DNA of 64,000 nt from Odiellus spinosus. Lineage: Eukaryota > Arthropoda > Arachnida > Opiliones > Phalangiidae. This document shows, one piece after another, positions 6,392-46,251 of this stretch. The position numbers and the translations under genes were made by a program. The notes below the pieces were generated by a model that was given only the letters and a program-made list of their open reading frames with translations, did no database searches and had not been told where the DNA came from. The stretch covers positions 13,732,601 to 13,796,600 of the forward strand of contig OY987237.1 in NCBI GenBank assembly GCA_963920705.1, in the 5' to 3' direction. Within the stretch, counting starts at the first letter, position 1. Each line of letters opens with the position of its first letter.

Positions 6392-7391
6392 AAATTTCCC
6401 TCGTTGAAAAATTTAATGATATCACGTATAAAGAAGATTCTATTTTGATTTGACTACACGATTAAAGCTAGGCTTCAGGTTATCTCTATGATTAGTTTAC
6501 TTATGAGAGCATCATCAAACGCGCTTCCAATTCAAGCTAGAATCGTCGACTCTTCGCTATCAGCTTCATAAAGGTATTAGCTAGTGAAACGGAAGTTATA
6601 AATTTTTGAAATCTTTCTCGAGAATTCCTAATGAAATTACAGACGAGGCATCCAGCCAACGGATTTATAATTAATTAAAATTCATTTATTGTTCTAAAGA
6701 TTTGCACGTATCAGGTACTCCCCAAATTTTAACTATATATATTCTCCCGATGTATAAAGGAGCCAAAACTACTCGGATATTTCTGACGAGACCTCGCGAG
6801 GCACTCGTTCGAGCTCGAGTTCCACAAGCCTCGCCTTTTCCGCCTCTCGAAATGACTAATTAATTTTATATTTTAATTCTGGCACGAAGTTCGGTTAATT
6901 CGAGAGCCTAGGCTAATCCTTCGTGTAATTTGTTAGTACACTATACCGGTCGGGTTACGAGCAGCGCTGGCGCGAGTCAAAGAGTTTTGTCTAGCCAATA
7001 GAGCGCTAGCTCGCGGCCGAGCGCCTACGAGAATCGGAGCGAATACAACCGAAAAGCGATATAGAATATTTAAAGGGTTATTTACACGTACTTTAAAGGG
7101 AGACTGAAGTAAAAATTGATTAAAAATGGCCCTTCCCCTAGAGAAATATGTTTTGGTGTTTAATTACGACAATTAGTTTTAAATTCGATGTTTTACCTCC
7201 ATTTACTTCAGGCGTTTACAACCCTAAGAGGTGTAGCTATTCATTGACTTGCCCATCTTGTATATATTTTCGTTTGTTCTTTTATTAATTTTGGGCTTCA
7301 AAGACTGTTTTTCACGGAGCAAACATCCAAAACTACAAAATTGGTGTAAATTGTTTAAAAATCGCCAAAACGAAATTTCAATGAATAATAT
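6392..7391. other. unassigned stretch with a GC-rich patch and one TTAA-type end
   Basis: Positions 6955-7050 are GC- and CpG-rich and include a CCAATAGAGCGC word, so a promoter is conceivable but unsupported. At 7093 TTAA is followed by AGGGAGACTGAAGTAAA, and TTTACTTCAGGC lies inverted near 7202-7213. This suggests a decayed TTAA-type MITE. Confidence 0.4.
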
Positions 7392-7688
7392 CAAGAAGGA
7401 TCAGACAAGGAGAGGAAAAGTGGGGCTGCGTTGAGTTAGAGAGAGAAGAGCCAACCTCCCACTCGGGTGGAAAAGGGGATAGGAAATTCTCGAGGTATGG
7501 CCACGTGGTCACTAGCGTCGTCGGCTACTACGCGTCTCATAAAGGATCCGTTTTACAAACGTGATAACAATTTACCACGAAGCATCTCTACCCCCGTCTG
7601 TCCCCCGTTCTCCCAGAGTGGGAGTTTAGGCCGACGCAGTAGGAACCGCGCCGATCCCACTTTTCCTCTCCTTGTCTGATCCTTCTTG
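7392..7688 (+). mobile_element. MITE-H copy 1
   Basis: Inverted ends CAAGAAGGATCAGACAAGGA and its complement, 297 bp, with exact 7-bp TSD ATAATAT at 7385-7391 and 7689-7695. Interior GC-rich with a palindromic CCACGTGG at 7501-7508. No transposase frame. It shares TSD length and CA...TG ends with families A, C and G. Confidence 0.85.
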
Positions 7689-8739
7689 ATAATATTCAAA
7701 CATTTTCCATCGACGATGATTAGAAATTACGGTTAATTAACCTCGTTTCTTTCGAGAAAAGTTTGAATTTTCACAGGAATAGTAGCTACCTATTGCGTCT
7801 CAATCTTAATTACATTCATTTTTGCGAAATCTATATTTTTTTTCTGATTTTGAATTTGACAGCCAACAAAATTTCGCGAAGCTTTATATTTGAGATATTT
7901 TTATTTTGACATTTTAAGGTCAGAAAATGTATTAACTATAACCAAAAGTCTAGCACATAATTCCATAAAAGTAAACAACGACCCCTAGATTAATACTATC
8001 AACAAAGGGCCAGGTAAAGATGCCCATCACTAAAAAGAGCGAAAAAGTCATCATCCCTGTCTGGCTCGAATGATTTGGTCTCTAGCTTGATATTTTGTGT
8101 CTTTAGAAAGGGGCATAATTTAGGCGGGCCGCGCTTCGCTATATTATCTTCCCATAACTCTGGATTTTCTCCAAAGTGTGGCGCTTCCGATTCCAGTATT
8201 TACAAGGCGACTGCGGCCTCTAGAGTGTCTCGAATCATAATCTGCCGGTACTATTACCAGGACCTTTGCTGTTATGCTATGAGGCGATGTTTACTTTTAT
8301 GTGATAAACTTTTGCTAAAGCTATATATATAGAAATCTCTGTAGGAGCAGAAAATCTTAGTTTAGTCATTTTGAGACTTTTCATCCTTTAAATAAATTTT
8401 TCCTTAAATTGGAGCGAATGTTTTGATTGGTTTTATATATTTCATCGTAAAATATACTGCCCATTTTAGGCGATAAAATCAGGAGTAACTAGCCCTTAAG
8501 GCTTTAAAGGGTCGAAAAGTCATAGCGTTCTCGCGTTATACGGCCATGGAATTTCTAAGGCCTTAGTTAACTTGATCAATAAAATATATTTATTACAAGT
8601 AGCGCGTGTGATTGTCTCCTAAGTAATAAAAGCCACTGCGCTGGACAAGAATATAACCATATATCCTGGAAGAATGGCATTTATTTCGAAAGGGAAGGTG
8701 AAAAAGAATATCATTTTTTAACGTCTATATAAGTATCGT
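7689..8739. other. unassigned stretch
   Basis: Positions 8060-8260 are somewhat GC-richer and hold a short frame without an ATG start. At 8690 AGGGAAGGTGAAAAAG resembles a TTAA-type MITE end, but no partner is clear. Confidence 0.4.
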
Positions 8740-9157
8740 CAGAGGTATATAATAACCCCCTTCTGGGGGAAGTATGAAAGGTAGGCAAAATCGACGAACA
8801 ACGAGTGCCCGGCGTAAATCGCGGCGGATCGACACACCGCTTTACTCCCAAAAAATAGTTACACCATTTTGAACCTCACTAAATTTTCCCTACGCGCACT
8901 TCCGGAACTCGCGAGCTGAAGTCAACCTTCGACTCCGTTTTAACAGACAGCCCGACTCCCGAGACAGGAAGTTCTAAACACAAATCGAGCCGTCTTGTTT
9001 ATACAAAGACCATTTACTAGAGTAGCGACATTGAGAAGTCCAGCGCGAGCTAGTGGCCTAGATAGTCAGCAGCGGGCTCTTGTTGTTCGTGATTTTTAGC
9101 ATTGATAGTATAGGGGCTTTCATACTTCCCCCCGAAGGGGGTTATTATATACCTCTG
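8740..9157 (-). mobile_element. MITE-C copy 1
   Basis: 418 bp with ends CAGAGGTATATAATAACCCC inverted at both sides, and exact TSD GTATCGT at 8733-8739 and 9158-9164. Each arm has its own hairpin, CCCCC facing GGGGG. The interior is GC-rich and contains CACTTCCGGAAC, an ETS-type word. Orientation is opposite to copies 2 and 3. Confidence 0.9.
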
Positions 9158-9186
9158 GTATCGTATTCAAATCATCAGATCTGGAC

Positions 9187-9387
9187 TAAAGGGAGGGTGA
9201 AGTTGGGTAGACCTTACACGTAGGCAATTCGGCTGATCTCCATGAATCCCGCTAAGCCTATTTTCCGGGTAAGTTTTAAATTTATTTCTAGTTTAATATT
9301 TGTTTTGTAAACTTTTTATCGATGGATTAGGCCTATTTAAACGATAAGGAATCGATAAAAATTCACTTATTAGGTTGCATTCTCCCT
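9187..9387 (+). mobile_element. family E copy 2
   Basis: Left end AAAGGGAGGGTGAAG, core GCTAAGCCTATTTTCCGGGT and end GGTTGCATTCTCCCT followed by TTAA. It lacks the inverted left half seen at 19026-19500. Confidence 0.65.
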
Positions 9388-9391
9388 TTAA

Positions 9392-10030
9392 ACCACTGAG
9401 AATACCTCAATATATATACATCAAAACTTTCACAATAAATTTAATTAAGAAATAAAAATATTTCATTATCCCTTTAGACTAGAACCTAATTTAAAATCCT
9501 AAATTATGGAGAATTAGATAATCTTATCTTCTGGAAGGAGCTTTGTGTTGGGCGAATGTTTTGAAAATTAGTAAACTTAAAAGTTTGACGTGGCCTCCAA
9601 GTTTCGCAATTATCTTTCATATATAAGATTGACGGCATCGAATTAGAATTTAATTTATGTAAGATTGCTTTAGTTTTATAAAGTTTTAAGGCAATTGACA
9701 CTAGGACATTAATGAATGGTACGTAGAAATTTAACTGAGATATAAATTAAAGCGTATAGTATTCAAGATCATTTATATTCATTTTAAATTGGCGCTTTTC
9801 GAATAATTACCATAAATTTGACTTTAATTAGCATATTCGACTCAAAACCTCGATAGCTGTTAAAGATATTTAATTAGTCTAATGATTACGAGACAATTAA
9901 GTTTAAAGCAAAAGTTGAATGATGTCATTATCTATTTTCTTTCCGCTATCAACTGAATTACATCTAATTCAATCGACGAACAAAATCAGATTAAAAAAAT
10001 ATTTTTAAAACTAAATTATATAGATAATAT
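9392..10030. other. unassigned AT-rich stretch
   Basis: A TTCATTATCCCT word near 9463 resembles a TTAA-type MITE end. Nothing else seen. Confidence 0.4.
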
Positions 10031-10549
10031 CAGAAGTAGATGAAACCCTCCTTTGAAGTCTACTACTCTAATGTTCGATATAGCGCTCCTCTCTGTATGG
10101 GTAAAATTCCCAATTTTACGAGATCGGAGGGGTCCTACTTCATACCCCACTGTCTACGTAAAATTGGAAATTCTCTCTCTCTCCACAAACGACGACGTTT
10201 ATTGACGAACTCCAAGGCTGCTAGAGATATTCGCTGGACGAACTCCCGCTCCGAAAATATCTACCGTTAAGGCCCGTTTACAAAAGAGCGGAAAGCTGAA
10301 GCGTAAGCCGATGCATGGAGCAATAACAACAGGAGGCATAGGTTCATACATCGTTTAAAAATGAGATTTTGGAAACTATGCCTCCTCTTGTTATTGTTCC
10401 ATGCATCGGCTTACGCTTCAGCTTTCCGCTCTTTTGTAAACGGACCTTTAGGAGGCGTACGAATCGCGCCTTTTGAGAATAACCCATACAGAGAGGGGTA
10501 GACAAGACCAGGGAGTAATAGACTTCAAAGGAGGGTTCATCTACTTCTG
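10031..10549 (-). mobile_element. MITE-A copy 4, carrying a nested hairpin element
   Basis: Exact TSD ATAATAT at 10024-10030 and 10550-10556. Both termini carry the GTAGATG variant. It is mosaic: its left part has subfamily II words (TTCGATATAGC, GATCGGAGG), its right part subfamily I (CCTTTTGAGAATAACC). Without the insertion at 10270-10447 it is 341 bp. Confidence 0.92.
10270..10447. mobile_element. palindromic 178-bp element (family K) inside MITE-A copy 4
   Basis: Two arms of about 72 bp (AGGCCCGTTTACAAAAGAGC at the left, matching inverted at the right with only a few mismatches) surround a loop of about 35 bp. The MITE-A target reads TTA once; here TTA flanks both ends (10267-10269, 10448-10450), a 3-bp duplication. 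A 3-bp TTA duplication is typical of PIF/Harbinger, so that superfamily is inferred. No coding capacity. Confidence 0.85.
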
Positions 10550-10639
10550 ATAATATTTCTATCTACCTCGGTTTTTATATTTTTACTAAAGGTATTTAAA
10601 CAAAAATTCAAGGGATTCTGCCTCTTCATTTTATATCAT

Positions 10640-10927
10640 GGTTGCCACAGTTTTTTCAGTTTTAAAAATTCCCTGACCTTTTCCAACGATTTTCCCTGAC
10701 CGTTTCAGCTAATACTACATAATTTTAAACCTTTTTTTTTTTATAAAAAGCACTACAAACTTTGTTGCACGCGTATCTTTGTTCTAATCTATACAACTGA
10801 CACAGCTCCAAATATTTTCCGCAGATAATGATTGTAATTTCCTAGCTTCTTGAAAGATCTTTAAATTCCCTGACTTTCTTGATTCATTTTCCAATTCCCT
10901 GACTTTTCCCTGACCTGTGGCAACCCT
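10640..10927 (+). mobile_element. family D copy 3
   Basis: GGTTGCCACAG to CTGTGGCAACCCT, 288 bp, with single copies of the two phrases (CCTTTTCCAACGATTTTCC; GATTCATTTTCCAATTCC) that are amplified in other copies. Confidence 0.75.
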
Positions 10928-11359
10928 ATTTTAATATATTGGATATAAGTTTTTTTTTTCCAAATACCATTCGTGAACTCATTAGTTAGGCTATAATTTT
11001 AATGGATAAGAAGATTGAAAGTCTATTTTTTATTTCAGAAAAAAAGTGGGTTTTAGGAAATACGCCAAAAATCTTTTAAATAACCGAGTCAAGATCAAAA
11101 CCTTAGACGTTCGGTACAAAAAAAAAAAAAAAAAGTGTGGGCTCTCAAATAAGAACATTTAACAAGAGGGGTTCGCTAAAAGTTAAAACAACCTTAAATT
11201 GCGTGCCAGAACGAGCGAGAATCATCTGAAGCTCTAATCTATTTTATTTTATTTATATTTATTTTATTTGATATAGTATGGAACCTATAAAATAGCCACG
11301 TGATGTATTTCGAATAGTTTTATTAACGATCTTTCCGAAAACGTCACTCAAATTAGCTA
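10928..11359. other. unassigned AT-rich stretch
   Basis: Includes an A run near 11119-11135 and TTTATTTTA-type simple sequence. No gene. Confidence 0.4.
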
Positions 11360-11998
11360 CGGTCACACTAGCGTTTCTTAATCGATTTGAAACGATAAAA
11401 TCAAACCAATATTCAAATCGACAGATATCGTTTTAAGCGTCAAGGATTCAAGCATTATCTTTATAAATCGATTTATCGTAGCTTCATCTATCGGTTGTTG
11501 AAACCAGCCGAATCGGTACGAAACTGGTTCCCGAAGCAGCTTCGAGATTTCGAATCAAATCAGAAGCCGATGAAACCCTCCTTTGAAGTCTACTACTCCA
11601 ATGTTCCATATAGCGCTCCTCTCTGTATGGGTAAAATTCCCAATTTTACGAGTTAGAAGGGGTCCTACTTCATCTCCCCTGTCTACGGAAAATTGGAAAT
11701 TCTCTCTCTCCACAAACGACGACGTTTTTTGGACGAACTCCGAGGCTGCTAGAGATATTCGCTCGACGAACTCCCGCTCCGAAAATATCTACCGTTAGGT
11801 GGCGTACGAATCGCGCCTTTTGAGAATAACCCATACAGAGAGGGGTAGACAAGACCCGGGAGTAATAGACTTCAAAGGAGGATTTCATCGGCATCTGATC
11901 AAATCGATACGAGAAAATACAATTTCCCGTTCATACGACTCTAGGGAAACCTTTTGTAACGATTTCAATCGATTCCAAGGCTTAGTATGAACGCGGCC
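11360..11998 (+). mobile_element. MITE-B copy 2, with MITE-A copy 5 inside
   Basis: Runs from CGGTCACACTAGCG to TTAGTATGAACGCGGCC. Inner words TTTATCGTAGCTTCATCTAT and GGTTCCCGAAGCAG match copies 4, 5 and 6. Without the nested A it is about 295 bp. It is a non-coding inverted-end element of unknown superfamily. Confidence 0.7.
11561..11897 (-). mobile_element. MITE-A copy 5, inside MITE-B
   Basis: Exact TSD ATCAAAT at 11554-11560 and 11898-11904. The unoccupied site is visible in MITE-B copy 4 near 26590 (GAATCAAATCGATTCGAG), which confirms element length and 7-bp duplication independently. Subfamily I. Confidence 0.95.
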
Positions 11999-12623
11999 TT
12001 ACTTTATAAAGTTTCGATCAAACTAATAAGCCCTAAAACTAGTTCTAAAACCCTTAGAAGTTTAACCCTTAAAAGCCAGAAAAAAAAAGGTTTAAGAGTT
12101 TTTAGGTTGCGTATATACACTTAGTTCAGAGCTAGTTTTTTTTTCTTCTTTTTAAACGCCTACGTTAGTGGTGTGACGATCCTTTAATCACGCGTCAAAT
12201 CAAATTAACAGCGAAAGCGAAAAGCCACCTAGCTTTTGGTTCGGGCTTTCAACTTATCCTGACGCCATTCATTAAGAGATTTAAAAGCTAGAAAGCTCTT
12301 TCTACAACGGTTTAACCAGAAAGTTTAGTAGTGAGAGAGGAGAACTATAACGTTGTTGTGTTTAGGATCGACGATGATAAGTGGCAATTGGAGGAGATTG
12401 TCTCTAGGTTAAACAAACGCGTGACGTGCCGAAGCTCGCTTTGCAAGGTGGTGTCAGATATCGTCTCAAATTTCCATTGTTTTAGTAATATACACAACGA
12501 TATTAATTATAAACAGTATATAAATTTAAAGAATTAAAATATTAAAGGGATAATGAATGAATTAGATTGATTAAACATGTTTTTTTAATAGACAATTTAA
12601 AATAAGCAAAGCGTAGCATAATT
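11999..12623. other. unassigned stretch
   Basis: TTAA followed by AGGGATAATGAATGAA at 12543 looks like one end of a TTAA-type MITE. A 68-codon frame at 12331-12537 lacks an ATG start. Confidence 0.4.
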
Positions 12624-13355
12624 CAGGGTTGCCACAGTTCTTTCAGATTCAAATTCCCTGACTTTTCCAGGATTTTCCCTGACCGATTCAGCTAATACTA
12701 CCCAATTTGTTCTAATCTATACAACTGACACGGTCAGTTTCAAACTTTTTCTGCAGATAATGATTGAAATTTCGTGGCTTCTTGAAAGATCTTTAAATTC
12801 CCTGACTATTCCCTGACTTTTTAAAATATCTTAAAATTCCCCAACTTTTTTGGTTCATTTTCAAAATTCCTGACTTTTTTGGTTCATTTTCAAAATTCCT
12901 GACTTTTTTGGTTCATTTTCAAAATTCCTGACTTTTTTGGTTCATTTTCAAAATTCCCTGACTTTTTTGATTCATTTTCAAAATTCCCTGACTTTTTTGA
13001 TTCATTTTCAAAATTCCCTGACTTTTTTGATTCATTTTCAAAATTCCCTGACTTTTTTGATTCATTTTCAAAATTCCCTGACTTTTTTGATTCATTTTCA
13101 AAATTCCCTGACTTTTTTGATTCATTTTCAAAATTCCCCGACTTTTTTTGATTCATTTTCAAAATTCCCCGACTTTTTTTGATTCATTTTCAAAATTCCC
13201 TGACTTTTTTGATTCATTTTCAAAATTCCCTGACTTTTTTGATTCATTTTCAAAATTCCTGACTTTTTTGGTTCATTTTCAAAATTCCTGACTTTTTTGG
13301 TTCATTTTCAAAATTCCTGACTTTTCCCTGCTTTCCCTGACCTGTGGCAACCCTG
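12624..13355 (+). mobile_element. family D copy 4, expanded
   Basis: Starts CAGGGTTGCCACAG and ends CTGTGGCAACCCTG. It is about 450 bp longer than D1 because of the internal array at 12839-13318. The simple frames read across it on both strands are products of the repeat, not genes. Confidence 0.85.
12839..13318. repeat. 29-31 bp minisatellite, 16 units
   Basis: The unit is TTCATTTTCAAAATTCC plus TGACTTTTTTG and variants. Units 1-4 and 15-16 carry GGTTC; the central units 5-14 carry GATTC. Two units near 13141-13190 have an extra T. The pattern suggests growth from the middle. Confidence 0.95.
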
Positions 13356-18581: not shown

Positions 18582-18920
18582 CAGAAGCCGATGAAACCCT
18601 CCTTTGAAGTCTACTACTCTAATGTTCGATATAGCGCTCCTTTCTGTATGGGTAAAATTCACAATTTTACGATATCGGAGGGGTCCTACTTCATACCCCC
18701 CTGTCTACGGAAAATTGGAAATTCTCTCTCTCCACAAACGACGACGTTTTTTTTGACGAACTCCGAGGCTGCTAGAGATATTCGCTGGACGAACTCCCGC
18801 TCCGAAAATATCTACCGTTAGGAGGCGTACGAATCGCGCTTTTTGAAACTAACCCATACAGAGAGGGGTAGATAAGACTCGGGAGTAATAGACTTCAAAG
18901 GAGGGTTTCATCTACTTCTG
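18582..18920 (-). mobile_element. MITE-A copy 6
   Basis: Exact TSD ACCACGC at 18575-18581 and 18921-18927. Subfamily II. One terminus reads GCCGATG and the other GTAGATG. Confidence 0.93.
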
Positions 18921-19500: not shown

Positions 19501-19504
19501 TTAA

Positions 19505-20735: not shown

Positions 20736-21072
20736 CAGAAGCCGATGAAACCCTCCTTTGAAGTCTATTACTCCCGAGTCTTGTCTACCCCTCTCTGTAT
20801 GGGTTATTCTCAAAAGGCGCGATTCGTACGCCTCCTAACGGTAGATATTTTCGGAGCGGGAGTTCGTCGAGCGAATATTTCTAGCAGCCTTGGAGTTCGT
20901 CCAAAAAACGTCGTCGTTTGTGGAGAGAGAGAATTTCCAATTTTCCGTAGACAGGGGGGATGAAGTTGGACCCCTTCTAACTCGTAAAATTGGGAATTTT
21001 ACCCATACAGAGAGGAGCGCTATATGGAACATTGGAGTAGTAGACTTCAAAGGAGGGTTTCATCGGCTTCTG
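20736..21072 (+). mobile_element. MITE-A copy 7
   Basis: Full-length subfamily I. The flanks ACGATGT and GTGATAC do not match, so the site was rearranged after insertion or the copy is a recombinant. Confidence 0.92.
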
Positions 21073-23149: not shown

Positions 23150-23481
23150 CAGAAACCGATGAAACCCTCCTTTGAAGTCTATTTCTCCCGGGTCTTGTCT
23201 ACCCCTCTCTGTATGGGTTATTCTCAAAAGGCGCGATTCGTACGCCTCCTAACGGTAGATGTTTTCGGAGCGGGAGTTCGTCGAGCGAATATCTCTAGCA
23301 GCCTCGGAGTTCGTCCAAAAACGGCGTCGTTTGTGGAGAGAATTTCCAATTTTCCGTAGACAGGGGGGATGAAGTAGGACCCCTTCTAACTCGTAAAATT
23401 GGGAATTTTACCCATACAGAGAGGAGCGCTATATGGAACATTGGAGTAGTAGACTTCAAAGGAGGGTTTCATCGGCTTCTG
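23150..23481 (+). mobile_element. MITE-A copy 8
   Basis: 332 bp, subfamily I, first bases CAGAAACCG. Flanks CTATTAT and ATATAGC do not form a duplication. Confidence 0.92.
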
Positions 23482-25347: not shown

Positions 25348-25672
25348 CAGAAGCCGATGAAACCCTCCTTTGAAGTCTACTACTCTAACGTTCCATATAG
25401 CGCTCCTCTCTGTATGGGTAAAATTCACAATTTTACGAGTTAGAAGGGGTCCTAATTCATCCCCCCCTGTCTACGGAAAATAGGAAATTCTCTCTCTCCA
25501 CAAACGACGACGTTTTATGGACGACCTCCAAGGCTGCTAGAGATATTCCCGCTCCGAAAACATCTACCGTTAAGAGGCGTACGAATCGCGCCTTTTGAGA
25601 ATAACCCATACAGAGAGGGGTAGACAAGACCCGGGAGTAATAGACTTCAAAGGAGGGTTTCATCGGCTTCTG
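25348..25672 (-). mobile_element. MITE-A copy 9
   Basis: Exact TSD GTTGATC at 25341-25347 and 25673-25679. Subfamily I, 325 bp because of a short internal deletion around GATATTCCCGCTCC. Confidence 0.93.
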
Positions 25673-26081: not shown

Positions 26082-26644
26082 ACGGTTACACTAGCATTTC
26101 ATTAATCGATTTGAAAGGGTATTTTCCAATATTCAAATCACCAGAAGTAGATGAAACCCTCCTTTGAAGTCTATTACTCCCGAGTCTTGTCTAACCCTCT
26201 CTGTATGGGTTAGTTTTAAAAAGCGCGATTCGTACGCCTCCTAACGGTAGATGTTTTCGGAGCGGGAGCTCGTCGAGCGAATATCCCTAGCAGCCTTGGA
26301 GTTCGTCAAAAAAACGTCGTCGTTTGTGGAGAGAGAGAATTTCCAATTTTCCGTAGACAGGGGGGATGAAGTAGGACCCCTCCGATCTCGTAAAATTGTG
26401 AATATTACCCACAATATCGAACATTAGAGTAGTTGACTTCAAAGGAGGGTTTCATCGGCTTCTGAAATCACCGGGAATCGTTTTAAGCGTCACGTGTTCA
26501 CGCATTATCTTTATAAATCGATTTATCGTAGCTTCATCTATCGGTTGTTTGAAACCGAATCGGTATGAAACTGGTTCCCGAAGCAGTTTCGAGAAATCGA
26601 ATCAAATCGATTCGAGAAAAGACGATTTCCATTTGGAGTTCATG
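26082..26644 (+). mobile_element. MITE-B copy 4, with MITE-A copy 10 inside
   Basis: Starts ACGGTTACACTAGCATTTC, contains the same inner words as copy 2, and ends in GACGATTTCCATTTGG before an A run instead of the usual GAACGCGGCC terminus. It preserves the empty site for MITE-A copy 5. Confidence 0.7.
26142..26464 (+). mobile_element. MITE-A copy 10, inside MITE-B
   Basis: Exact TSD AAATCAC at 26135-26141 and 26465-26471. Subfamily II with a GTAGATG 5' terminus; 323 bp, lacking part of the CATACAGAGAGG arm. Confidence 0.93.
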
Positions 26645-27114: not shown

Positions 27115-27431
27115 CAAGAATTCATTCAGGTTCCATAAGAATATGGGAGGGCCGAGATTCAATAACCATCCTCCCAAACTTTGTAGAAAAAGTTCGTCCG
27201 CTTCGAATCGATTTTTCAAGTAAATCGCTCCTGACATCTATTATTAACCCGCGCCACTAACGACCTTGACATAATATTTTGGGTAATAAAAATGGAGCCG
27301 ACCGAAAAAAGATCTAAGCGTACAAAATGTTGCGAAAATTGCGGACGAACTTTTGTTACAAAGTTTGGGAGGATGGTACCAGAGGCTAAAGCTATGCTCC
27401 CATATTCTTATGGAACCTGAATGGATTCTTG
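27115..27431 (+). mobile_element. MITE-G copy 1
   Basis: 317 bp with ends CAAGAATTCATTCAGGTTCC and its near-complement, and exact 7-bp TSD ATATTAC at 27108-27114 and 27432-27438. Inner words AACTTTTGTTACAAAGTTTG and GCGCCACTAACGACC match copy 2. Non-coding. Confidence 0.88.
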
Positions 27432-29688: not shown

Positions 29689-30004
29689 CAAGAATCCATT
29701 CGGGTTCCATAAGAATATGGGAGCATAGCTTTAGCCTCTGGTACCATCCTCCCAAACTTTGTAACAAAAGTTCGTCCGCAATTTTCGCAACATTTGTACG
29801 CTTAGATCTTTTTTCGGTCGGCTCCATTTTTATTACCCAAAATATTATGTCAAGGTCATTAGTGGCGCGGGTTAATAATAGATGTCAGGAGCGATTTACT
29901 TGAAAAATCGATTCGAAGCGGACGAACTTTTGCTACAAAGTTTGGGAGGATGGTTATTGAATCGCGGCCCTCCCATATTCTTATGGAACCTGAATGGATT
30001 CTTG
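29689..30004 (-). mobile_element. MITE-G copy 2
   Basis: 316 bp, opposite orientation to copy 1 and very similar. Flanks CTATCAT and CTATTAT match at 6 of 7 positions, consistent with an aged 7-bp duplication. Confidence 0.87.
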
Positions 30005-30716: not shown

Positions 30717-31053
30717 CAGAAGCCGATGAAACCCTCCTTTGAAGTCTACTACTCTAATGTTCCATATAGCGCTCCTCTCTGTATGGGTAAAATTACCAAT
30801 TTTACGAGTTAGAAGGGGTCCTACTTCATCCCCCCTGTCTACGGAAAATTGGAAATTCTCTCTCTCCACAAACGACGACGTTTTTTGGACGAACTCCGAG
30901 GCTGCTAGAGATATTCGCTCGACGAACTCCCGCTCCGAAAACATCTACCGTTAGGAGGCGTACGAATCGCGCCTTTTGAGAATAACCCATACAGAGAGGG
31001 GTAGACAAGACCCGGGAGTAATAGACTTCAAAGGAGGGTTTCATCGGCTTCTG
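30717..31053 (-). mobile_element. MITE-A copy 11, family reference
   Basis: 337 bp with exact TSD GATAAAC at 30710-30716 and 31054-31060. Subfamily I. Termini CAGAAGCCGATGAAACCCTC and its complement are perfect; the inverted arms extend imperfectly to about 80 bp, including CTCTCTGTATGGGT. Non-autonomous; the roughly 70-codon frames on both strands are not evidence of a gene. Confidence 0.95.
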
Positions 31054-31829: not shown

Positions 31830-32167
31830 CAGAAGCCGATGAAACCCTCCTTTGAAGTCTATTACTCCCTAGTCTTGTCTACCCCTCTTTGTATGGGTTA
31901 TTCTCAAAAGGCGCGATTCGTACGCCTCCTAACGGTAGATGTTTTCGGAGCGGGAGTTCGTCGAGCGAATATCTTTAGCAGCCTTGGAGTTCGTCCAAAA
32001 AACGTCGTCGTTTGTGCAGAGAGAGAATTTCCAATTTTCCGTAGACAGGGGGGGATGAAGTAGGACCCCTTCTAACTCGTAAAATTGGGAATTTTACCCA
32101 TACAGAGAGGAGCGCTATATGGAACATTGGAGTAGTAGACTTCAAAGGAGGGTTTCATCGGCTTCTG
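31830..32167 (+). mobile_element. MITE-A copy 12
   Basis: 338 bp, subfamily I. Flanks TTTTTAG and GTTTCAA do not match. Confidence 0.92.
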
Positions 32168-34671: not shown

Positions 34672-35156
34672 CAGGGTTGCCACAGTTTTTTCAGATTCAA
34701 ATTAACTGACTTTTCCAGGTTTTTCCCTGACCTTTTCCAACGATTTTCCCTGACTGTTTCAGCTAATTCTAATTTGTCTGTATTTTCCTCGGCCGACATA
34801 TTTTTCATAAAAAGCGCTACAAATTTAGCAATTGGGTTCGCCAAACTTTTTGCACAACTGTCACAGTCAGCTTAAAATCTTTTCCGCGAATAATTATTGT
34901 AATTTTCTGGCTTCTTGAAAGATTTTTAAATTCCCTGACTTTTCCCCGACTTTTTAAAATATTTTAAAATTCCCTGACTTTTTTGGTTCATTTTCAAATT
35001 CCCTGACTTTTTTGGTTCATTTTCAAATTCCCTGACTTTTTTGGTTCATTTTCAAATTCCCTGACTTTTTTGGTTCATTTTCAAATTCCCTGACTTTTTT
35101 GGTTCATTTTCAAATTCCCTGACTTTTCCCTGTTTTCCCTGACCTGTGGCAACCCC
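34672..35156 (+). mobile_element. family D copy 5, mildly expanded
   Basis: CAGGGTTGCCACAG to CTGTGGCAACCCC. The central part is diverged (TAATTCTAATTTGTCTG). It contains the five-unit array at 34971-35120. Confidence 0.8.
34971..35120. repeat. 29-bp minisatellite, 5 units
   Basis: Unit TTCCCTGACTTTTTTGG plus TTCATTTTCAAA, the same word expanded in D4. Units are essentially identical. Confidence 0.93.
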
Positions 35157-36427
35157 GAGTCTTAATTACAAATACGATTCTAAATATGTCATAAAAAGAA
35201 ATTAACGCGACAGTAAAAATATTTTATAATCACCATTTTCGAAATTTTAAAACATAAATTCCAGGCAATAATACGTCAACACTATGATCGCGTGGCTATT
35301 GTAGAACCTACAGTTGATTCTCGCGCGTTCTGGCACGTGATAAGGTCGCTTTCGCGCGGCGTTTTTCGTAAAAGTACTTAATTCAGAAAATCCAAGCTTT
35401 CGTATCAAAATTTGGAAACTAGTACGTCATATAACGGGAAAAAATTAATTTTAAAACAGCGTCACTTTAAGCATTTCATAAACCCTTTAACGGTTATAGC
35501 TTTGAAATCTATTTCTTTTTATAAACCGGGAAATTCATCATTTGTAATGGGAAATTCGGCAGGGCGAATTCAATATTAAGCCCAGATAATTTAGACCGGG
35601 TTATTGGGGAATCGAACACTCCCCTTTTCAATCGTCTTTGGATAAAAATAAAAAAAAAATTGGTATTCAATTTTCTGTTCATTGACATGCTGTTAGGGTT
35701 CACCCCTTTCCACGGGGCAAGTTAGGCTTTAAATTATTAGTCGAACTACAATAGAGTTGGTTCGTATATACGCGCCCCCAAATAATATATTTCAAAATTT
35801 TCTTTTTCTTTTTTAAACGTTATATATTAATGTTCAAAAGTGCTGATTTATTAATTTGAAAATCTGTTGGAAATATTTTAATTAATTTCGAATCACTGTA
35901 TAATTAATTCACTGTTAAGGTAAATGACCCGAATTTATACGAATGGTTTAGTTTCGTAAACATTCACTGAAGTTTATATTAAATTATACGATTATTAAGT
36001 GGTAATACAAGTATGGTACGATCTCCTAACTTGGTAACCTATTGGTACACTTTTCTTTAAAAATTCGTAACTTTAGTTTGACTGACTCGAATTAAGGTTA
36101 ATAGGGCTCGTTTTGTAGACGTCATATAGGGCTATTTGGAGAAAAATCATCGCCACACTAGGAATATATCCTCGGAAGATAAGACGCTAATTAGCCAACC
36201 CCACAAATTTGGCAAATTATATGGGAATTTTATTGAAAATTTAATTTTAGGCCCCTGGAAATAAGGTTTAACGGTCTTGTGAAAAATCCCACGTTTAAGT
36301 AAAAATAGCCCCCCCCCCCCCCCAATAAACCACTTTATATTATTAATTTTGCCAATTTAATTAGAAAAATGTAGAAATTAATATTAGGACCAAAATTTTG
36401 GATTAAATGCAGAGGATTACATAATAC
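35157..36427. other. unassigned stretch with a C run
   Basis: A run of 15 C at 36309-36323. The minus frame at 35509-35703 has no ATG at its start and no features. Confidence 0.4.
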
Positions 36428-36845
36428 CAGAGGTATATAATAACCCCCTTCGGGGGAAAGTATGAAAGCCCCTATACTACCAATGCTAAAAATCACGAAC
36501 AACAAGAGCCCGCTGCTGACTATCTAGGAAACTAGCTCGCGCTGGACTTCTCAATGTCGCTACTCTAGTAAATGGTCTTTGTATAAACAAGACGGCTCGA
36601 TTTGTGTTTAGAACTTCCTGTCTCAGGAGTCAGGCTGTCTGTTAAAATGGAGTCGAAGGTTGACTTCAGCTCGCGAGTTCCGGAAGTGCGCGTAGGGAAA
36701 ATTTAGTGACGTTCAAAATGGTGTAACTATTTTTTGGGAGTAAAGCGGTGTGTCGATCCGCCGCGATTTACGCCGGGCACTCGTTGTTCGTCGATTTTGC
36801 CTACCTTTCATACTTCCCCCCGAAGGGGGTTATTATATACCTCTG
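36428..36845 (+). mobile_element. MITE-C copy 2
   Basis: 418 bp, exact TSD ATAATAC at 36421-36427 and 36846-36852. Close to copy 3 in sequence and orientation. Keeps the arm hairpins and TTCCGGAAGTGCGCG. Confidence 0.92.
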
Positions 36846-38470: not shown

Positions 38471-38807
38471 CAGAAGCCGATGAAACCCTCCTTTGAAGTC
38501 TATTACTCCCGGGTCTTGTCTACCCCTCTCTGTATGGGTTATTCTCAAAAGGCGCGATCCGTACGCCTCCTAACGGTAGATGTTTTCGGAGCGGGAGCTC
38601 GTCGAGCGAATATCTCTAGCAGCCTCGGAGTTCGTCCAAAAAACGTCGTCGTTTGTGGAGAGAGAGAATTTCTAATTTTCCGTAGACAGGGGGGATGAAG
38701 TAGGACCCCTTCTAACTCGTAAAATTGGGAATTTTACCCATACAGAGAGGAGCGCTATATGGAACATTGGAGTAGTAGACTTCAAAGGAGGGTTTCATCG
38801 GTTTCTG
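38471..38807 (+). mobile_element. MITE-A copy 13
   Basis: 337 bp, subfamily I, 3' end GGTTTCTG. Flanks ATAAAAA and GTAATAT do not match. Confidence 0.92.
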
Positions 38808-39105: not shown

Positions 39106-39921
39106 GAAAATAATAGTTGAAAATAATACTCCAATTTTTATTAATTTTTGGAACCTTTTGCAATTATAAGACACAATTTTGGTCTTTTCAAATTAATTTC
39201 GAATGTTTTGGTTAAGTTTTCGTGAAGATTCCAAAAAACAAAAGAAACGTCAGTTTTAAATTTAACTCAAATTTTCGCTTTTAGATAAGTTACTTTCGCT
39301 TTCAGACGCCAGCTCAGAATTCTTTACATTTGAAAACGACATTGTATTTTCTGTATCCATGTATGTATAGTCTATCAAAGCAACCTATCTCGCGCGGGTT
39401 GGGGTGAGTTATTCTAATAGCTTTAAGATTAATAGTCGTACGAAATCAATATCTCAAAAAAGGAGAAAATCCGAGAGAAAGACAAATTTTGGCGACGCAG
39501 ACATAGAGGGACATAAACTAGCGAAAAAATGAACTTATTCAAATAATGGAGTTATCTTGTTTTTAGACGTTATAATACAACTGGGAAATAATAGAAAAAT
39601 ATTTTATCTTTCTCCCTAGTATTTTGTTTCATCTTCCGAAAAGAAAATTTTCGAAGAAAACGTAAATTAATCATAAAGAGAGCGAATTTTTAATTTTAAA
39701 AATTTTAGCTTAAAATGGAAAAACCATGGATGATGTATACTTAAATTCTTGGGATTGGTTTCGAATGAGATGAAAGCGAAAAAACAAAGTTTAAAAAATT
39801 AATTACATCTTGTTTTTCAAAGGGATAATGAAGTAAAAACATAATTATGATGTATATTTTTAAGAATATTTGAATACTTCAATAATATATTAAAAATAAA
39901 ATATCATCATTAACCTTTTAA
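39106..39921. other. unassigned AT-rich stretch
   Basis: CAAAGGGATAATGAAG near 39819 resembles a TTAA-type MITE end. Nothing else. Confidence 0.4.
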
Positions 39922-40252
39922 CAGAAGTAGATGAAACCCTCCTTTGAAGTCTATTACTCTTGTCTACCCCTCTCTGTATGGGTTAGTTTCAAAAAGCGCG
40001 ATTCGTACGCCTACTAACGGTAGATATTTTCGGAGCGGGAGTTCGTCGAGCGAATATCTCTAGGAGCCTTGGAGTTCGTCAAACAAACGTCGTCGTTTGT
40101 GGAGAGAGAGAATTTCCTATTTTCCGTAGACAGGGGGGTATGAAGTAGGACCCCTCCGATCTCGTAAAATTGTGAATTTTACCCATACAGAGAGGAGCGC
40201 TATATCGAACAATAGAGTAGTAGACTTCAAAGGAAGGTTTCATCGGCTTCTG
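39922..40252 (+). mobile_element. MITE-A copy 14
   Basis: Exact TSD CTTTTAA at 39915-39921 and 40253-40259. Subfamily II, GTAGATG at the 5' terminus, 331 bp. Confidence 0.93.
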
Positions 40253-41381
40253 CTTTTAATTAAGGTTTGGGTATTTGAAGTGTTTCTAGACTGAAAATAT
40301 CACTAGCGCGAATAACATTTCTTAGTGAATTTAAGCAAATAAGCTCTAACAACGCTTATGAGCCGGAAAACAAGAAAAAAAAATCAAAGTTAATACGCTT
40401 TAATAAAAAACGTTATACAAAATGCAAAAGACGTCAGGATAAATTTTAAAACTAATTTACTAGAATGCGAAAGATTTGAATAATGAAAAAGAGACATTTT
40501 TAACAAGAAACCAAAGCAAGTATACCGCGTATATACTGAGTAACTTGACATATCTCCTTCCACCAACCCATCTCGACCTTTCTTTTAGTTTTTTTCCTTA
40601 CATTTTCGAGTGGAAAAACTTTGAAATAGAAATGAAGTTACATTCTAAGAAAGCCTTACAATCCCGAAGAGAAATCTCGATTAGACTCTTTAAAAATTAA
40701 ACTAATTTCAAGAATACAATCGAACGTAGAATTTTTGGCCCTTACGAATTTAATTTTCAAGATTGTAGAAAACAAACGACATTTGCACGTTGGATACGAG
40801 GCTCGTGCTGATTCAAAGTCAAATTAAGTTTGCAGCGAGGAACAATAGCTAATCTTAATCAAATTTCTATCGCAATTCTTTTACGAGATACTTTTACACG
40901 CGCTAACAACTTAAATTGATACGAAAATAGAAATTATTCAAATTTAGATTTCAATTCGTATAAATACGAATAACATTTATTTCTTATTCGTTTCTTAGTT
41001 AGATGAAAGAGTGCTTAGAACGGTACACGTTGAAAATTCCGCGTGATTCTAACAATGGAACTAGCTGCTCAGAAAGCGTACAAAATAGAATGGAGGCATT
41101 AAGAGTCGCTAAGGAAGACCTATAGAGATTGTCCATCGTAATAAATGGAACGCGTACGAAGGCAAGTAAAGGGTTATTAACTCATCTGGTCGCTTACTGA
41201 CATTTCCTACTCTTTCTTAACAATGTATAATTCGGAGAAAGATTCCTCGTAAGGACCTCACTAGTACCAAAACCTCCTAAATTACCCTATCCAATTAGGG
41301 CAAGCTGTTCTCGGAAGTTAGATTACGTTCTACAAAAGGGGGTTGGAACCATTTTCTCGTCTTGCTATATAGACTCAATCC
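40253..41381. other. unassigned stretch with the degenerate recurring word
   Basis: GGCTCGTGCTGATTCAAAG (near 40800) and TTTTACACGCGCTAACAAC (near 40888) belong to the same decayed word as at 33-34 kb. A frame at 40476-40700 lacks an ATG start. Confidence 0.4.
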
Positions 41382-41385
41382 TTAA

Positions 41386-41680
41386 AGGGCAAATGAAAAG
41401 CAAAACTAGGACGCTAATTTTATTGAAATTATTTCATAATTTTATCATCAAGTTTCCTAAATAAATAAACTTAGAATATAAAATGGAAAAAAGTACATTA
41501 AAAATTTTAAATCCAATTTTTATGGTTTATATTCTATAATTAGACTTACGTATAGGTTTAGCTATGCTTGAAATTTAAAGGTGCAAGCTGATTGGTTGAT
41601 TGTTCTAAATAAAAAAAGATTTTAAGCCTAACTCATTTTTAAAGATAAACAAATTTTAAAATTTATTTTTCATCTTCTCT
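41386..41680. mobile_element. TTAA-type MITE (J2)
   Basis: AGGGCAAATGAAAAGCAAA at the left pairs with the inverted AGAGAAGATGAAAAATAAA at the right. TTAA flanks both sides (41382-41385, 41681-41684). 295 bp, AT-rich, non-coding. Confidence 0.55.
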
Positions 41681-41684
41681 TTAA

Positions 41685-42842
41685 CCCTTTCCTTTCTAGA
41701 GTTGTTGGATTCTATGTTCGACGAATTTGAATCAATAACGTGACGTTAAAGAAACCAGAAAAGGTGGGAAGACTTTGGAAAAGCAATCAATCAAGTCCAG
41801 CATCGTACGCGTTGATTCAAATAAGTATAATACACTAACTACCAAGTTACTTCCTCATCTACAGTGCATTCGAGTTAATTGAACGAATAAGGGTACGTTT
41901 GGGGCAAGGATAAATAAACTAGACTAACTAATTCAGGCTCGTACGAATTGTCTCAAATAAAATGAACAGAAAGTATCGCAACACCCAAGCATATACTGCT
42001 AGCTCACGGTAACACGAACCAACTGAGGGTGAAGGGTATATACGGGTTCTTCCTTGTCATTGATAGACAGGGATTGGGTCTGTATACCACGCACGCAGTT
42101 TACTGTACCCCCGCGAGCGCTCCTAATTACGACCTTTGAACCCCATAAGTTAAACTCCCGCTAAACCACCCCCATTCTTAACTTGGGTATACTACACACG
42201 GTATTAACACGTTATAATAGAAGTTGAGGGAACCTTTAAAGAGATTGTGACACGAAGTAGTTTAAAAATTAAACATATTGAAGTTTCAAATTCCTTCTAC
42301 GATTTGAAGCAGGAAAGTTAGTCTCAAAGAATATTATTATTAACTTCTGTTAGTAGTAATCGAAAAAAATTTGTCTGCATGAAGCTCAGCTATAAATTTA
42401 AATTCATTATAGGAAATATGGCATTTTCCTATTCAAAATATATAGGATTATACAGGACACACAAATTTGAGTCAAAATAACTCTTAAAAACTGAAAAAAT
42501 ATTTTACAGTTAGGAATTACTATAACAATTGGACTTGACCGAAACTTTATGAGTTTGATTAACCTCCACCCACCCTTTTAGGATGCTACAGACGTGTGAG
42601 CCTCGGCTAATAAGCTTTACTTATAAGCAACATTAGATAAGAAGTTTTCAATCGCGAAATGTGTCCTTAGATAAATAAGTACCTAGGAAAAATGGTCTAG
42701 GTATAAACTTTATATGACATTTACAGGATAATATAGGACGAGTGTGAAAATATAGGACTGAATAGGAATTAATAGGACCACTGGGCTGCCTGAGTCTGTC
42801 AAAAATGTATTTCCTGATACAAATAGATCTAATTCGTGATAG
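41685..42842. other. unassigned stretch
   Basis: Further variants of the degenerate word near 41810 (GCATCGTACGCGTTGATTC) and 41937. No gene. Confidence 0.4.
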
Positions 42843-43179
42843 CAGAAGCCGATGAAACCCTCCTTTGAAGTCTACTACTCCAATGTTCCATATAGCGCTC
42901 CTCTCTGTATGGGTAAAATTCACAATTTTACGAGTTAGAAGGGGTCCTACTTCATCCCTCCTGTCTACAGAAAATTGGAAATTCTCTCTCTCCACAAACG
43001 ACGACGTTTTTTGGACGAACTCCAAGGCTGCTAGAGATATTCGCTCGACGAACTCCCGCTCCGAAAACATCTACCGTTAGGAGGCGTACGAATCGCGCCT
43101 TTTGAGAATAACCCATACAGAGAGGGGTAGACAAGATCCGGGAGTAATAGACTTCAAAGGAGGGTTTCATCGGCTTCTG
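42843..43179 (-). mobile_element. MITE-A copy 15
   Basis: 337 bp, exact TSD GTGATAG at 42836-42842 and 43180-43186. Subfamily I. Longer frames that run out of it into flanking DNA are not genes. Confidence 0.95.
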
Positions 43180-44099
43180 GTGATAGGGAAAATGAATGCA
43201 AGAGCGTTATTAAACAAAATTTGCAGTATACTAATAAAATTATTTCATAATCCCTTTAAAAGAAATATAATATTTTACAACATTATGTCTATTTTACCCA
43301 TAGCCCCAATTTTCTTGGTCTATTTCGAGTACATTCTTATTTAGGACTGAGGGGGCTATAACTTTCGAAACTCACATCAGTAACGTCTTTGTTAACAACT
43401 AGTAACGTTCATTGACCGCGTCTTGTTACATAGATAGAGTACAAAATAGTTTAGAATCCATCGGGCCTCGGTTACACAATCGCTTCCAAAGAAAAACGGG
43501 CTATGCCCAACCGTTGGTACTCGAAGCTAGCTGCTAGAGCTACCTCAAACCATCCATCACAACAGTATTCAGGGCTCGCAAGAGCAGCCTTCTTTTTCTC
43601 CAAAAAAAAAAAAAAAAGAAAAAAAAAAAAGTTGCCCAAGATATTTTTTTCTACTTACTATACTTTTTAAAAGCCTTTCCTATTAAGGAACTATACTACG
43701 TTAGAGTTCAAGCTAAGTTTTAAAAACTACTTTCATCCCTATCGAGATTTAACATTACGTATTAATCCGTTAATATTTCATTTAAAATGCAAACTCCGAA
43801 TGAATTAAGCTACCACGAAACTGAAAAAAATTGCCCTGTCACTAAAATAGAAAGTATAATGTATCACAAGGTCTTTAAAATCTGAAGTTTAATTAAAGAT
43901 CATCAATAGGTAGAGTAGAAAAGATACACCATTGAATTCGTTACGGCTTTAGCCCAGGCGTTAAACTTTCGTGCATGGATGCTATTGTATTTCTAATCCG
44001 TAACCGAATATAAAGGACTTTAAAATTAAACCCTAGTTTAATTTATGCTAAATAAAAATGGAGATTTGTTTTTATTGGACACTTTTTTGTTGATTATAT
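43180..44099. other. unassigned stretch
   Basis: An A-rich run at about 43601-43630 and a TAATCCCT-TTAA end near 43250. Nothing gene-like. Confidence 0.4.
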
Positions 44100-44518
44100 C
44101 AGAGGTATATAATAACCCCCTTCGGGGGGAAGTATGAAAGCTCCTATACTACCAATGCTAAAAATCACGAACAACGAGAGCCCGCTGCTGACTATCTAGG
44201 CCACTAGCTCGCGCTGGACTTCTCAATGTCGCTACTCTAGTAAATGGTCTTTGTATAAACAAGACGGCTCGATTTGTGTTTAGAACTTCCTGTCTCGGGA
44301 GTCAGGCTGTCTGTTAAATTGGAGTCGAAGGTTGACTTCAGCTCGCGAGTTCCGGAAGTGAGCGTAGGGAATATTTAGTGAGGTTCAAAATGGTGTAACT
44401 ATTTTTTGGGAGTAAAGCGGTGTGTCGATCCGCCGCGATTTACGCCGGGCACTCGTTGTTCGTCGATTTTTGCCTACCTTTCATACTTCCCCCCGAAGGG
44501 GGTTATTATATAACTCTG
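44100..44518 (+). mobile_element. MITE-C copy 3, inside a tandem duplication
   Basis: 419 bp, exact TSD ATTATAT at 44093-44099 and 44519-44525. The left flank ends in ATTGGACACTTTTTTGTTG, which is also the end of the tandem unit on the right, so the element entered an existing tandem repeat. Confidence 0.92.
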
Positions 44519-44520
44519 AT

Positions 44521-44744
44521 TATATTAATTGCTATTTGAATAGGGCATTTTGAATTTTAGTGAGTAGAAAATCCGACCAATTGGATGAATACAATGATAT
44601 TTTTTTTTTACAATTATTGGACACTTTTTTGTCTATATTAATTGCTATAAAGTTAAGGGCATTTTGAATTTTAGTGAGTAGAAAATCCGACCAATTGGAT
44701 GAATACAATGATCATTTTTTTACAATTATTGGACACATTTTGTC
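44521..44744. repeat. tandem duplication, period 113 bp
   Basis: Two units with GGGCATTTTGAATTTTAGTG and AATCCGACCAATTGGATGAA, each ending in ATTGGACAC then TTTTGTC. A trace of an earlier unit stands left of MITE-C copy 3. Confidence 0.88.
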
Positions 44745-45720
44745 TAGAGTCTGGAATGTCTGCGATGTAGACCAAATCGATAAACGGTAACCCCAAAATT
44801 TAACCAAAATTTAAATTAAAACGACTAGACTATATATAAATCCGAATAATTATGTCGGTTTATTGAAGTAGAATTATAGGGGTATATTTATATTGTATGT
44901 TTATAGGACGAGACACGATTAAAATTTTAAATTATTAACTCTATAGAGTGGAAATATAATAATTGAATTTGTTTAAAAATTAAAGATTCGTGCACACAAG
45001 GTACTTTGAAACTGAAAAATTTGAAATCCAGGAATTGATATATAAATGAAAATTAATATTTGACTATTATTTTTTTCGACTTCTAGCACAACTGCCCAAG
45101 GAAAAGATCCACCAATCAAATCGTAAAGCTTTAAAAAGCGCCAATTAGAAATTTATAGACCATCTTACATCCATTTCAAAAGGTTTGCCTGGTGTCACAA
45201 TTAACAAATGCTTAATTCATCTATAAGTATACGAGATAAAAATATTCCAAAAATTTTCATATTCATATTTTTTAGCGAACTGACTCCGTAAACTAAAACC
45301 GGTTTCATCTTTTCAATTCATATTTTAAAATTCAAATACGGTGGTCCTGGGTCAATATTAAGTGACGAAATTGTTTGGAAAAGGAAAGCGTACAAATTTC
45401 CATAACTTTAGGAAACTTTACGGACAGTTAAGCTCACGTCAAAAGGTATTTGAAGAAATACTTCAACCAGAAGTCAAAAATAAAACAAGCAAAACATATT
45501 CAAATAAGGTCGTCTCGTATGGATGGGAAGAGGGATGAAGAAATAGAGCTTTTCTCCAAGAAAACAGAGAGGTCCGAGTGTTTTTATCGAATATCGATCA
45601 AAATCCAATATGGGACACGCAAAAACCCCTTTGCTTTTCTTTAGCTTCTTTAGGCCACACGTCACTCGTTCATTCGTTGTTGGCGAAGAATTTGCGGCGA
45701 AAGAGTAAAAGGGCTTTAAG
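44745..45720. other. unassigned stretch
   Basis: Overlapping frames on both strands at 45450-45737 have no start-context or domain support. Confidence 0.4.
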
Positions 45721-46001
45721 CAAGGAGGATTAGACAAGGAGAAGAAATGTGGGGACGGCGCGGTTCCTAATGCGTCGGCCTAAACTCCCACTCTGGGAGA
45801 ACGGGGGTAGAGACGTTTCGTGGTAAAATGTTGTCGCGTGGGTAAAACGAATCCTTTATGAGACGCGCTAGCTAGCGACCACGTGACAACAGTTTACCTC
45901 GAGAATTTCCTATCCCCCCTTTCCACCCGAGTGGGAGGTTGGCTCTTCTCTCTCTAACTCAACGCAGCCCCACATTTCCTCTCCTTGTCTAATCCTCCTT
46001 G
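45721..46001 (-). mobile_element. MITE-H copy 2
   Basis: 281 bp, inverted ends CAAGGAGGATTAGACAAGGA, exact 7-bp TSD CTTTAAG at 45714-45720 and 46002-46008. Opposite orientation to copy 1. Retains CACGTG at 45880-45885 and the CCCACTCTGGGAGAACGGGG word. Confidence 0.88.
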
Positions 46002-46251
46002 CTTTAAGGTCGCGTCCATTTTTTATTTTCGTTTATATTTAAGAGGTTGCGCAACGATTTTGGTTCGAAATATATTATTAAAGGAGTCGTTTAATTTTGG
46101 AATTTTTTACAGGTTCAAAATTTTGAGATTAATTAGCTGTTTAAATAGCATATTTTACGTGACAAGGGCGTGGCACGTAACAATGATCTTTTTTAAGAGG
46201 ATAGTATTGTTACATTAACTGTATCCAGGCCCCTAGAAATATATGTTTAAG

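What the first reader, a model, noticed from the sequence alone, without database searches (positions are those of the whole stretch)
7385..46008. Four unrelated MITE families share a 7-bp duplication and CA...TG ends
A (CAGAAG), C (CAGAGG), G (CAAGAA) and H (CAAGAAGG or CAAGGAGG) have different interiors, yet 21 copies show exact 7-bp duplications. Exactly 7 bp is uncommon: hAT gives 8, PIF/Harbinger 3, piggyBac and Kolobok 4; P-type and Dada-type are closer to 7. One transposase type, possibly poorly described, could mobilise all four. The superfamily is inferred.
Basis: partly seen in the sequence, partly recalled or inferred. Interest (0 to 1): 0.75.

Follow-up and report, generated by a model that had tools for sequence, protein, structure and literature searches.

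The report
Four P-type MITE families, 7-bp duplications
Four families of short, gene-less jumping DNA elements in this genome insert at the same kind of 7-base site, the mark of part of the known P group of transposons, whose enzyme genes are plentiful in the same genome, so they look like passengers of that group rather than of an unknown one.

Summary
In the window 21 of 30 paired copies of families A, C, G and H have exact 7-bp duplications. Pooled with genome copies, 88 of 119 distinct copies do (A 26/34, C 24/34, G 22/33, H 16/18), none has 8; re-paired flanks match in 467 of 200,000. Together they prefer one palindromic target, consensus GTA(A/T)TAC, like the GTANTAC published for Galileo, a Drosophila P-superfamily transposon with 7-bp duplications (PMC4168063). 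The genome has at least 150 P-transposase domain hits. Two P families with transposase genes (ends CATGGACTC and CGGTGCCTC) have 33- and 31-bp inverted ends and exact 7-bp duplications in 7 of 7 copies. A hAT-like element found by the same kind of scan has 8. So the four are most likely P-superfamily MITEs of the Galileo-like 7-bp sort, probably moved by several P transposases with different end specificities. No transposase element carrying A, C, G or H ends was found among the few P loci read, so the link rests on target, ends and duplication length. A known kind; interest modest. In passing: a number of P elements here carry a conserved second gene, convergent with the transposase.

The parts
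7392..7688 (.). family H MITE, 297 bp, ends CAAGAAGGATCAGAC, TSD ATAATAT
   Evidence: 33-bp perfect inverted ends
45721..46001 (.). family H MITE (CAAGGAGG subtype), 281 bp, TSD CTTTAAG
   Evidence: 83% identical to 7392-7688 in opposite orientation
8740..9157 (.). family C MITE, 418 bp, ends CAGAGGTATATAATAACC, TSD GTATCGT
36428..36845 (.). family C MITE, TSD ATAATAC; 41-bp inverted ends
44100..44518 (.). family C MITE, TSD ATTATAT
27115..27431 (.). family G MITE, 317 bp, ends CAAGAATTCATTCAGG, TSD ATATTAC; 35-bp inverted ends
29689..30004 (.). family G MITE, flanks differ at 1 of 7
3519..3853 (.). family A MITE, TSD ATAAAAT
10031..10549 (.). family A MITE, 519-bp variant with inner hairpin, TSD ATAATAT
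11561..11897 (.). family A MITE, TSD ATCAAAT
18582..18920 (.). family A MITE, TSD ACCACGC
20736..21072 (.). family A MITE, flanks differ at 4 of 7
23150..23481 (.). family A MITE, flanks differ at 4 of 7
25348..25672 (.). family A MITE, TSD GTTGATC
26142..26464 (.). family A MITE, TSD AAATCAC
30717..31053 (.). family A MITE, 337 bp, TSD GATAAAC; 38-bp inverted ends
31830..32167 (.). family A MITE, flanks differ at 3 of 7
38471..38807 (.). family A MITE, flanks differ at 3 of 7
39922..40252 (.). family A MITE, TSD CTTTTAA
42843..43179 (.). family A MITE, TSD GTGATAG
46252..46573 (.). family A MITE, TSD GTTTAAG
47545..47883 (.). family A MITE, TSD TTACTAG
48833..49147 (.). family A MITE, TSD ATTGACG
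50211..50547 (.). family A MITE, TSD CGTTCAT
51495..51831 (.). family A MITE, TSD ATAAAAC
54072..54408 (.). family A MITE, flanks differ at 1 of 7
55620..55956 (.). family A MITE, flanks differ at 1 of 7
57334..57669 (.). family A MITE, flanks differ at all 7
60145..60480 (.). family A MITE, TSD GTACTTC
62552..62890 (.). family A MITE, flanks differ at 2 of 7

Best explanation
A, C, G and H are non-autonomous P-superfamily elements (P-MITEs) of the kind that makes 7-bp target-site duplications. Inferred mechanism: P-type transposases, which carry a THAP DNA-binding domain, an RNase H fold and a GTP-binding insertion, made elsewhere in the genome, bind the ~33-41 bp inverted ends, cut them out and insert them at a palindromic GTANTAC-like site with a 7-bp stagger that host repair turns into the duplication. 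Each MITE family is probably served by its own P subfamily, since ends differ. Shown: 7-bp duplication, shared target preference, end structure, and P elements with transposase genes in the same genome that leave 7 bp. Inferred: that those or related P transposases move A, C, G and H.
For: Exact 7 bp in 88 of 119 distinct copies, 8 bp in 0; null 467 of 200,000. Shared target: T at position 2 and A at position 6 in 57 of 88 exact duplications against 0.105 of all 7-mers in the window; consensus GTA(A/T)TAC. In A, C and G (56 pooled sites; H not included) the site is palindromic about the duplication's centre, 3.04 of 7 symmetric pairs against 1.75-2.54 at eight other axes, with T at -3 and A at +3. 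Galileo's published motif is GTANTAC with 7 bp. The genome has at least 150 P RNase H hits (PF21787). The L079 protein carries THAP, TNP-like RNaseH_N and GBD and aligns with the solved P transposase 6p5a, E 3e-21, including LxFDEM, a D after a hydrophobic strand, and DIVExxF (that these hold the catalytic D, D and E is recalled). Its family (31-bp ends CGGTGCCTC..., 4 copies) and the L081 family (33-bp ends CATGGACTC..., 3 copies) have exact 7-bp duplications in 7 of 7, with T2 in 5, A6 in 5, both in 4. One L081-type element lies inside a family A MITE with TSD ACTACAC. Inverted ends: A 38, C 41, G 35, H 33 bp.
Against: No transposase-bearing element with A, C, G or H ends was found in the P stretches read: the 8 loci L009-L016 (3.4 kb each), L078-L081 (6.4-6.6 kb each) and one 800-bp upstream stretch, out of 150 scored hits. 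Three long candidates with matching outer ends proved to be pairs of MITEs. The L079 element begins CG, not CA. P-MITEs described in Anopheles have 8-bp duplications (PMC1562414). Galileo's flanking motif (AANGT...ACNTT) differs from the T at -3 and A at +3 seen here. The motif is weaker in A (13 of 26 with both T2 and A6) and H (7 of 16) than in C (18 of 24) and G (19 of 22).
Confidence: 0.9

Rival explanations
1. The four families are hAT MITEs whose 8-bp duplication was misread as 7. Ends such as CAGAGG resemble hAT ends, and hAT prefers nTnnnnAn targets.
For: hAT dimerisation domains are plentiful here, at least 150 hits; CAGAGG-type ends and T2 ... A near the end of the duplication are hAT-like (recalled).
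Against: 0 of 119 MITE copies have an exact 8-bp duplication. The symmetry axis of A, C and G sites is the 4th base of 7. A scan for inverted ends in the window and loci finds one element with 8 bp (ATTATCAC, L080:4014-4683, ends hAT-like by recall), so 8 would have been seen.
Confidence: 0.04
2. A Dada-type or another poorly described superfamily with a 7-bp cut moves all four.
For: Dada duplications are 6-7 bp (PMC3706591). No transposase with these exact ends was found.
Against: Dada-U6 and -U1 lack terminal inverted repeats and Dada inserts in small RNA genes; these families have 33-41 bp inverted ends and sit at AT-rich palindromes. P elements in this genome explain the 7 bp without a new superfamily.
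Confidence: 0.05
3. A special case of the best explanation: one single P transposase moves all four families.
For: Same duplication length and target preference in all four.
Against: Representative copies share no match over 10 bp between families; the two P families with transposase genes each have their own 31-33 bp ends.
Confidence: 0.1

Closest known systems
Galileo (Drosophila, P superfamily)
   Same: 7-bp duplications, consensus GTANTAC, palindromic extended target (PMC4168063, passages and section 12 seen)
   Different: Galileo has long, internally repetitive inverted ends (abstract start of PMC3573991 in the listing); these have 33-41 bp ends. Flanking target bases differ (T at -3, A at +3 here; AANGT...ACNTT in Galileo). 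Three Galileo copies in D. willistoni have 8 bp; 0 of 119 here.
P-MITEs of Anopheles gambiae
   Same: Short copies without genes, with P-type ends, in families matching P subfamilies (PMC1562414, passages)
   Different: 8-bp duplications there, 7 here; there the P elements share the MITE ends, here no partner with these ends was found.
hAT MITEs
   Same: CAG-type ends, inverted repeats, T2 ... A targets (recalled)
   Different: 8-bp duplication (recalled); one hAT-like element in this genome shows 8, 0 of 119 copies of the four families do.
Dada
   Same: 6-7 bp duplications
   Different: No terminal inverted repeats in Dada-U6 and -U1; strict targeting to small RNA genes.

Membership tests
P superfamily (7-bp, Galileo-like kind) | 7- or 8-bp target-site duplication | tested here: met
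   88 of 119 distinct copies exactly 7, none 8
P superfamily (7-bp, Galileo-like kind) | palindromic GTANTAC-like target | tested here: met
   consensus GTA(A/T)TAC, T2 and A6 in 57 of 88; symmetry about the centre tested on A, C and G only
P superfamily (7-bp, Galileo-like kind) | terminal inverted repeats of about 30 bp starting CA (27-31 bp in Anopheles P; CA recalled) | tested here: met
   A 38, C 41, G 35, H 33 bp, all CA; P elements here 31 and 33 bp, one of them starting CG
P superfamily (7-bp, Galileo-like kind) | P transposase (THAP, RNase H, GTP-binding insertion) inside an element with the same ends | tested here: inconclusive
   P transposases with 7-bp duplications exist here, but none of the few read carries A, C, G or H ends
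hAT | 8-bp target-site duplication | tested here: not met
   0 of 119; positive control with 8 bp
Dada | no terminal inverted repeats (Dada-U6, -U1) | tested here: not met
   33-41 bp inverted repeats
Dada | insertion into small RNA genes | not tested
   flanks were not searched against RNA families; the sites look like AT-rich palindromes

The most novel reading that the evidence does not exclude
This genome holds a large Galileo-like 7-bp branch of the P superfamily that has given rise to several very abundant MITE families, driven by two-gene P elements: a THAP-RNase H transposase and a conserved convergent second gene that could be a transposition cofactor.
Probability: 0.25. Interest if true: 0.5.

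Novelty: new member of a known kind. Interest (0 to 1): 0.35.

Why it matters
It shows that duplication length plus target motif, taken over many copies, can place MITEs without a transposase into a superfamily, and it warns against filing CAG...CTG MITEs as hAT by their ends. Exact end counts are 17,656 for A, 3,199 for C, 3,989 for G and 2,680 for H, i.e. some 13,700 copies or about 1% of the genome if each copy has two such ends (own arithmetic). Among the papers seen here a 7-bp cut is described for Galileo, while the P-MITEs of Anopheles have 8.

Tried and rejected
Looked for autonomous partners in three ways. (1) P loci: L009-L016 with 1.5-kb flanks hold no A, C, G or H ends; L078-L081 gave the ends of two P families (L079, L081), none of A, C, G or H, and the ends of the L078 and L080 elements were not found; one 800-bp stretch upstream of a further P gene held none. 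An A end 38 bp left of the L081 element first looked like its own end; the other copy and the right side showed the element is inserted inside an A MITE. (2) Pairs of opposite ends 3.5-5.5 kb apart, chosen by eye from partial listings (first 100 places per family, all on contig C1; for A only forward ends were listed): C (L077), H (L087) and G (L088, L089) were all two inverted or neighbouring MITEs. G pairs of 700-880 bp were not fetched. (3) P proteins against the window and the loci other than the P loci: no hit. A 42-aa open frame in the window's G copy has no Pfam match at E 0.01 and was dropped. Two papers gave nothing to the point: PMC3212995 (passages) and PMC3169594 (passages; its Tm1 elements mostly have 9 bp, a second uncharacterised element there has 7). 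hAT and Dada were weighed and rejected, see rivals. The organism was not identified.
Full report
What was checked. The window is 64 kb of a 443-Mb genome in 286 contigs. Four families of short inverted-repeat elements were recovered by their ends: A, 23 paired copies, 315-519 bp; C, 3 copies, 418-419 bp; G, 2 copies, 316-317 bp; H, 2 copies, 281 and 297 bp.

Is it more than chance, and is it 7 and not 8? Copies from elsewhere in the genome were added: 30 loci each of C and G, of which L017 and L047 are the window's own copies and were counted once; short flanks of 10 A and 15 H copies; and copies met in other loci (2 C in L077, 1 C in L082, 2 G in L088 and L089, 2 H in L087, 1 A in L081). After removing copies with identical flanks (one C, one H), 88 of 119 have an exact 7-bp duplication (A 26 of 34, C 24 of 34, G 22 of 33, H 16 of 18); 13 more differ at one base; none has 8 or more, none exactly 6. 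Pairing flanks of different copies gives 467 exact matches in 200,000. The fetched genome copies were the best matches, so young copies are over-represented.

Target. The 88 exact duplications have T at position 2 in 71 and A at position 6 in 71, both in 57, against 10.5% of all window 7-mers; the consensus is GTA(A/T)TAC. The preference is strongest in C (18 of 24 with both) and G (19 of 22), weaker in A (13 of 26) and H (7 of 16). With the empty sites of 15 A, 21 C and 20 G copies, the pooled site is palindromic about the fourth base of the duplication (3.04 of 7 symmetric pairs, 1.75-2.54 at the other eight axes tried), with a further T at -3 (66%) and A at +3 (59%). H was not in that symmetry test.

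Known counterpart. Galileo, a P-superfamily transposon of Drosophila, makes 7-bp duplications with consensus GTANTAC and an extended palindromic target; three copies in D. willistoni have 8 (PMC4168063, passages and section 12 read). P elements and P-MITEs of Anopheles have 8 bp (PMC1562414, passages). Dada has 6-7 bp, but small RNA gene targets and, in Dada-U6 and -U1, no terminal inverted repeats (PMC3706591, passages). A search for P element, MITE and 7-bp wordings listed three papers, two of them on Galileo.

P elements in this genome. PF21787 (P-type RNase H) gives 150 scored hits of 386 candidates. Four stretches of about 6.5 kb were read. L079 holds a 794-aa frame with THAP, RNaseH_N and GBD domains that aligns to the P transposase structure 6p5a over residues 295-744, E 3.2e-21. 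Its element, 3,777 bp, has 31-bp perfect inverted ends CGGTGCCTCC... and, with three further copies placed by their offset from other hits, exact 7-bp duplications in 4 of 4 (ATTATAC, TTTGAAG, GTTTTAC, ATACAGA). L081 with L082 holds a 5,725-bp element with 33-bp perfect ends CATGGACTC..., a THAP exon and RNaseH_N and GBD; the genome has six exact copies of its first 27 bases, marking three elements, all with exact 7-bp duplications (ACTACAC, GTGTGAA, GACCACC). The ACTACAC copy lies inside a family A MITE. The ends of the L078 and L080 elements were not found. As a control, a scan for inverted ends in the window and the longer loci gave 26 pairs with a 7-bp duplication, 1 with 8 (ends TAGGGGTGTGCG, hAT-like by recall, in L080), 4 with 5, 1 with 4, and 634 pairings without one, many of which will be pairings between ends of different copies; three of the 5-bp cases are A copies whose 7-bp duplication starts and ends with complementary bases.

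What is not shown. No element with both a transposase and A, C, G or H ends was found. Three long pairs of opposite ends were only neighbouring MITEs; four of those six MITEs carry exact 7-bp duplications (GTCATAT, ATTTGGC, GTCCGAT, GTGTTAC).

How it most likely works. P-type transposases act in trans on MITE ends. Because representative copies of A, C, G and H share no match longer than 10 bp, and the two P families read have their own ends, each MITE family is probably tied to its own P subfamily, while the cut spacing (7) and the taste for GTANTAC are common to the group. The copies are abundant: exact end counts 8,770 + 8,886 for A (28-mer), 1,634 + 1,565 for C (24-mer), 2,017 + 1,972 for G (33-mer), 1,326 + 1,354 for H (27-mer). 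The 40 C copies scored are 98% or more identical to the window's, as are the 40 G copies scored, of 1,408 and 1,029 candidates, which suggests recent activity of both.

Verdict. New families of a known kind.

Noticed in passing
L078:5032-5682, L080:5899-6498, L081:4967-5701 (opposite strand to the transposase): P elements here carry a second open frame (199-245 aa, motif YVxG...RGGL, no Pfam match over its own cut-off), convergent with the transposase and alike in three families. Of 42 places matching it in the genome (49 rows; overlapping and neighbouring fragments removed by hand), 26 lie within 6 kb of one of the 150 scored P RNase H hits, 25 of these convergent; 16 have no scored hit near. 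Its likeness to the C-terminal tail of single-gene P transposases is weak (22 columns, probability 13). One paper search (10 of 13 papers listed) showed no title on such P elements.
   Followed up: partly
C1:3.1-10.6 Mb of the genome: The first 100 listed C ends leave a gap from 3.13 to 10.65 Mb on contig C1, while P and hAT domain hits are dense there. G and H ends do occur in the gap, so it is not closed to all these families; for A the listing ends at 2 Mb.
   Followed up: no
window 12624-13355, 10637-10928, 34723-35157: A different element, ends CAGGGTTGCCACAGGTCAGG, with an inner 29-30 bp tandem repeat (TTCCCTGACTTTTTTGGTTCATTTTCAAA) and, in the one paired copy, 5 matching flank bases rather than 7.
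   Followed up: no
window 10031-10549: An A copy of 519 bp contains a long inner hairpin (182 bp aligned to its own reverse complement at 88%), like an extra inverted insert.
   Followed up: no
window 27115-27431 and L088, L089: G copies carry an open frame starting ATGGAGCCGACCGAAAAAAGATCT that in L088 and L089, read by eye, seems to run to the right end; it may be a leftover of a source gene, or chance.
   Followed up: partly
L080:4014-4683: A 670-bp hAT-like element (ends TAGGGGTGTGCG, 8-bp duplication ATTATCAC) that lies at the end of the 668-aa transposase frame of a P element, before its last transposase parts.
   Followed up: no
G000 contig C1, e.g. 7378354-7379060, 15566177-15566911, 17124329-17125056, 2283189-2284072: Pairs of G ends 700-880 bp apart, longer than the 316-bp MITE: possible longer G variants or nested copies.
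   Followed up: no
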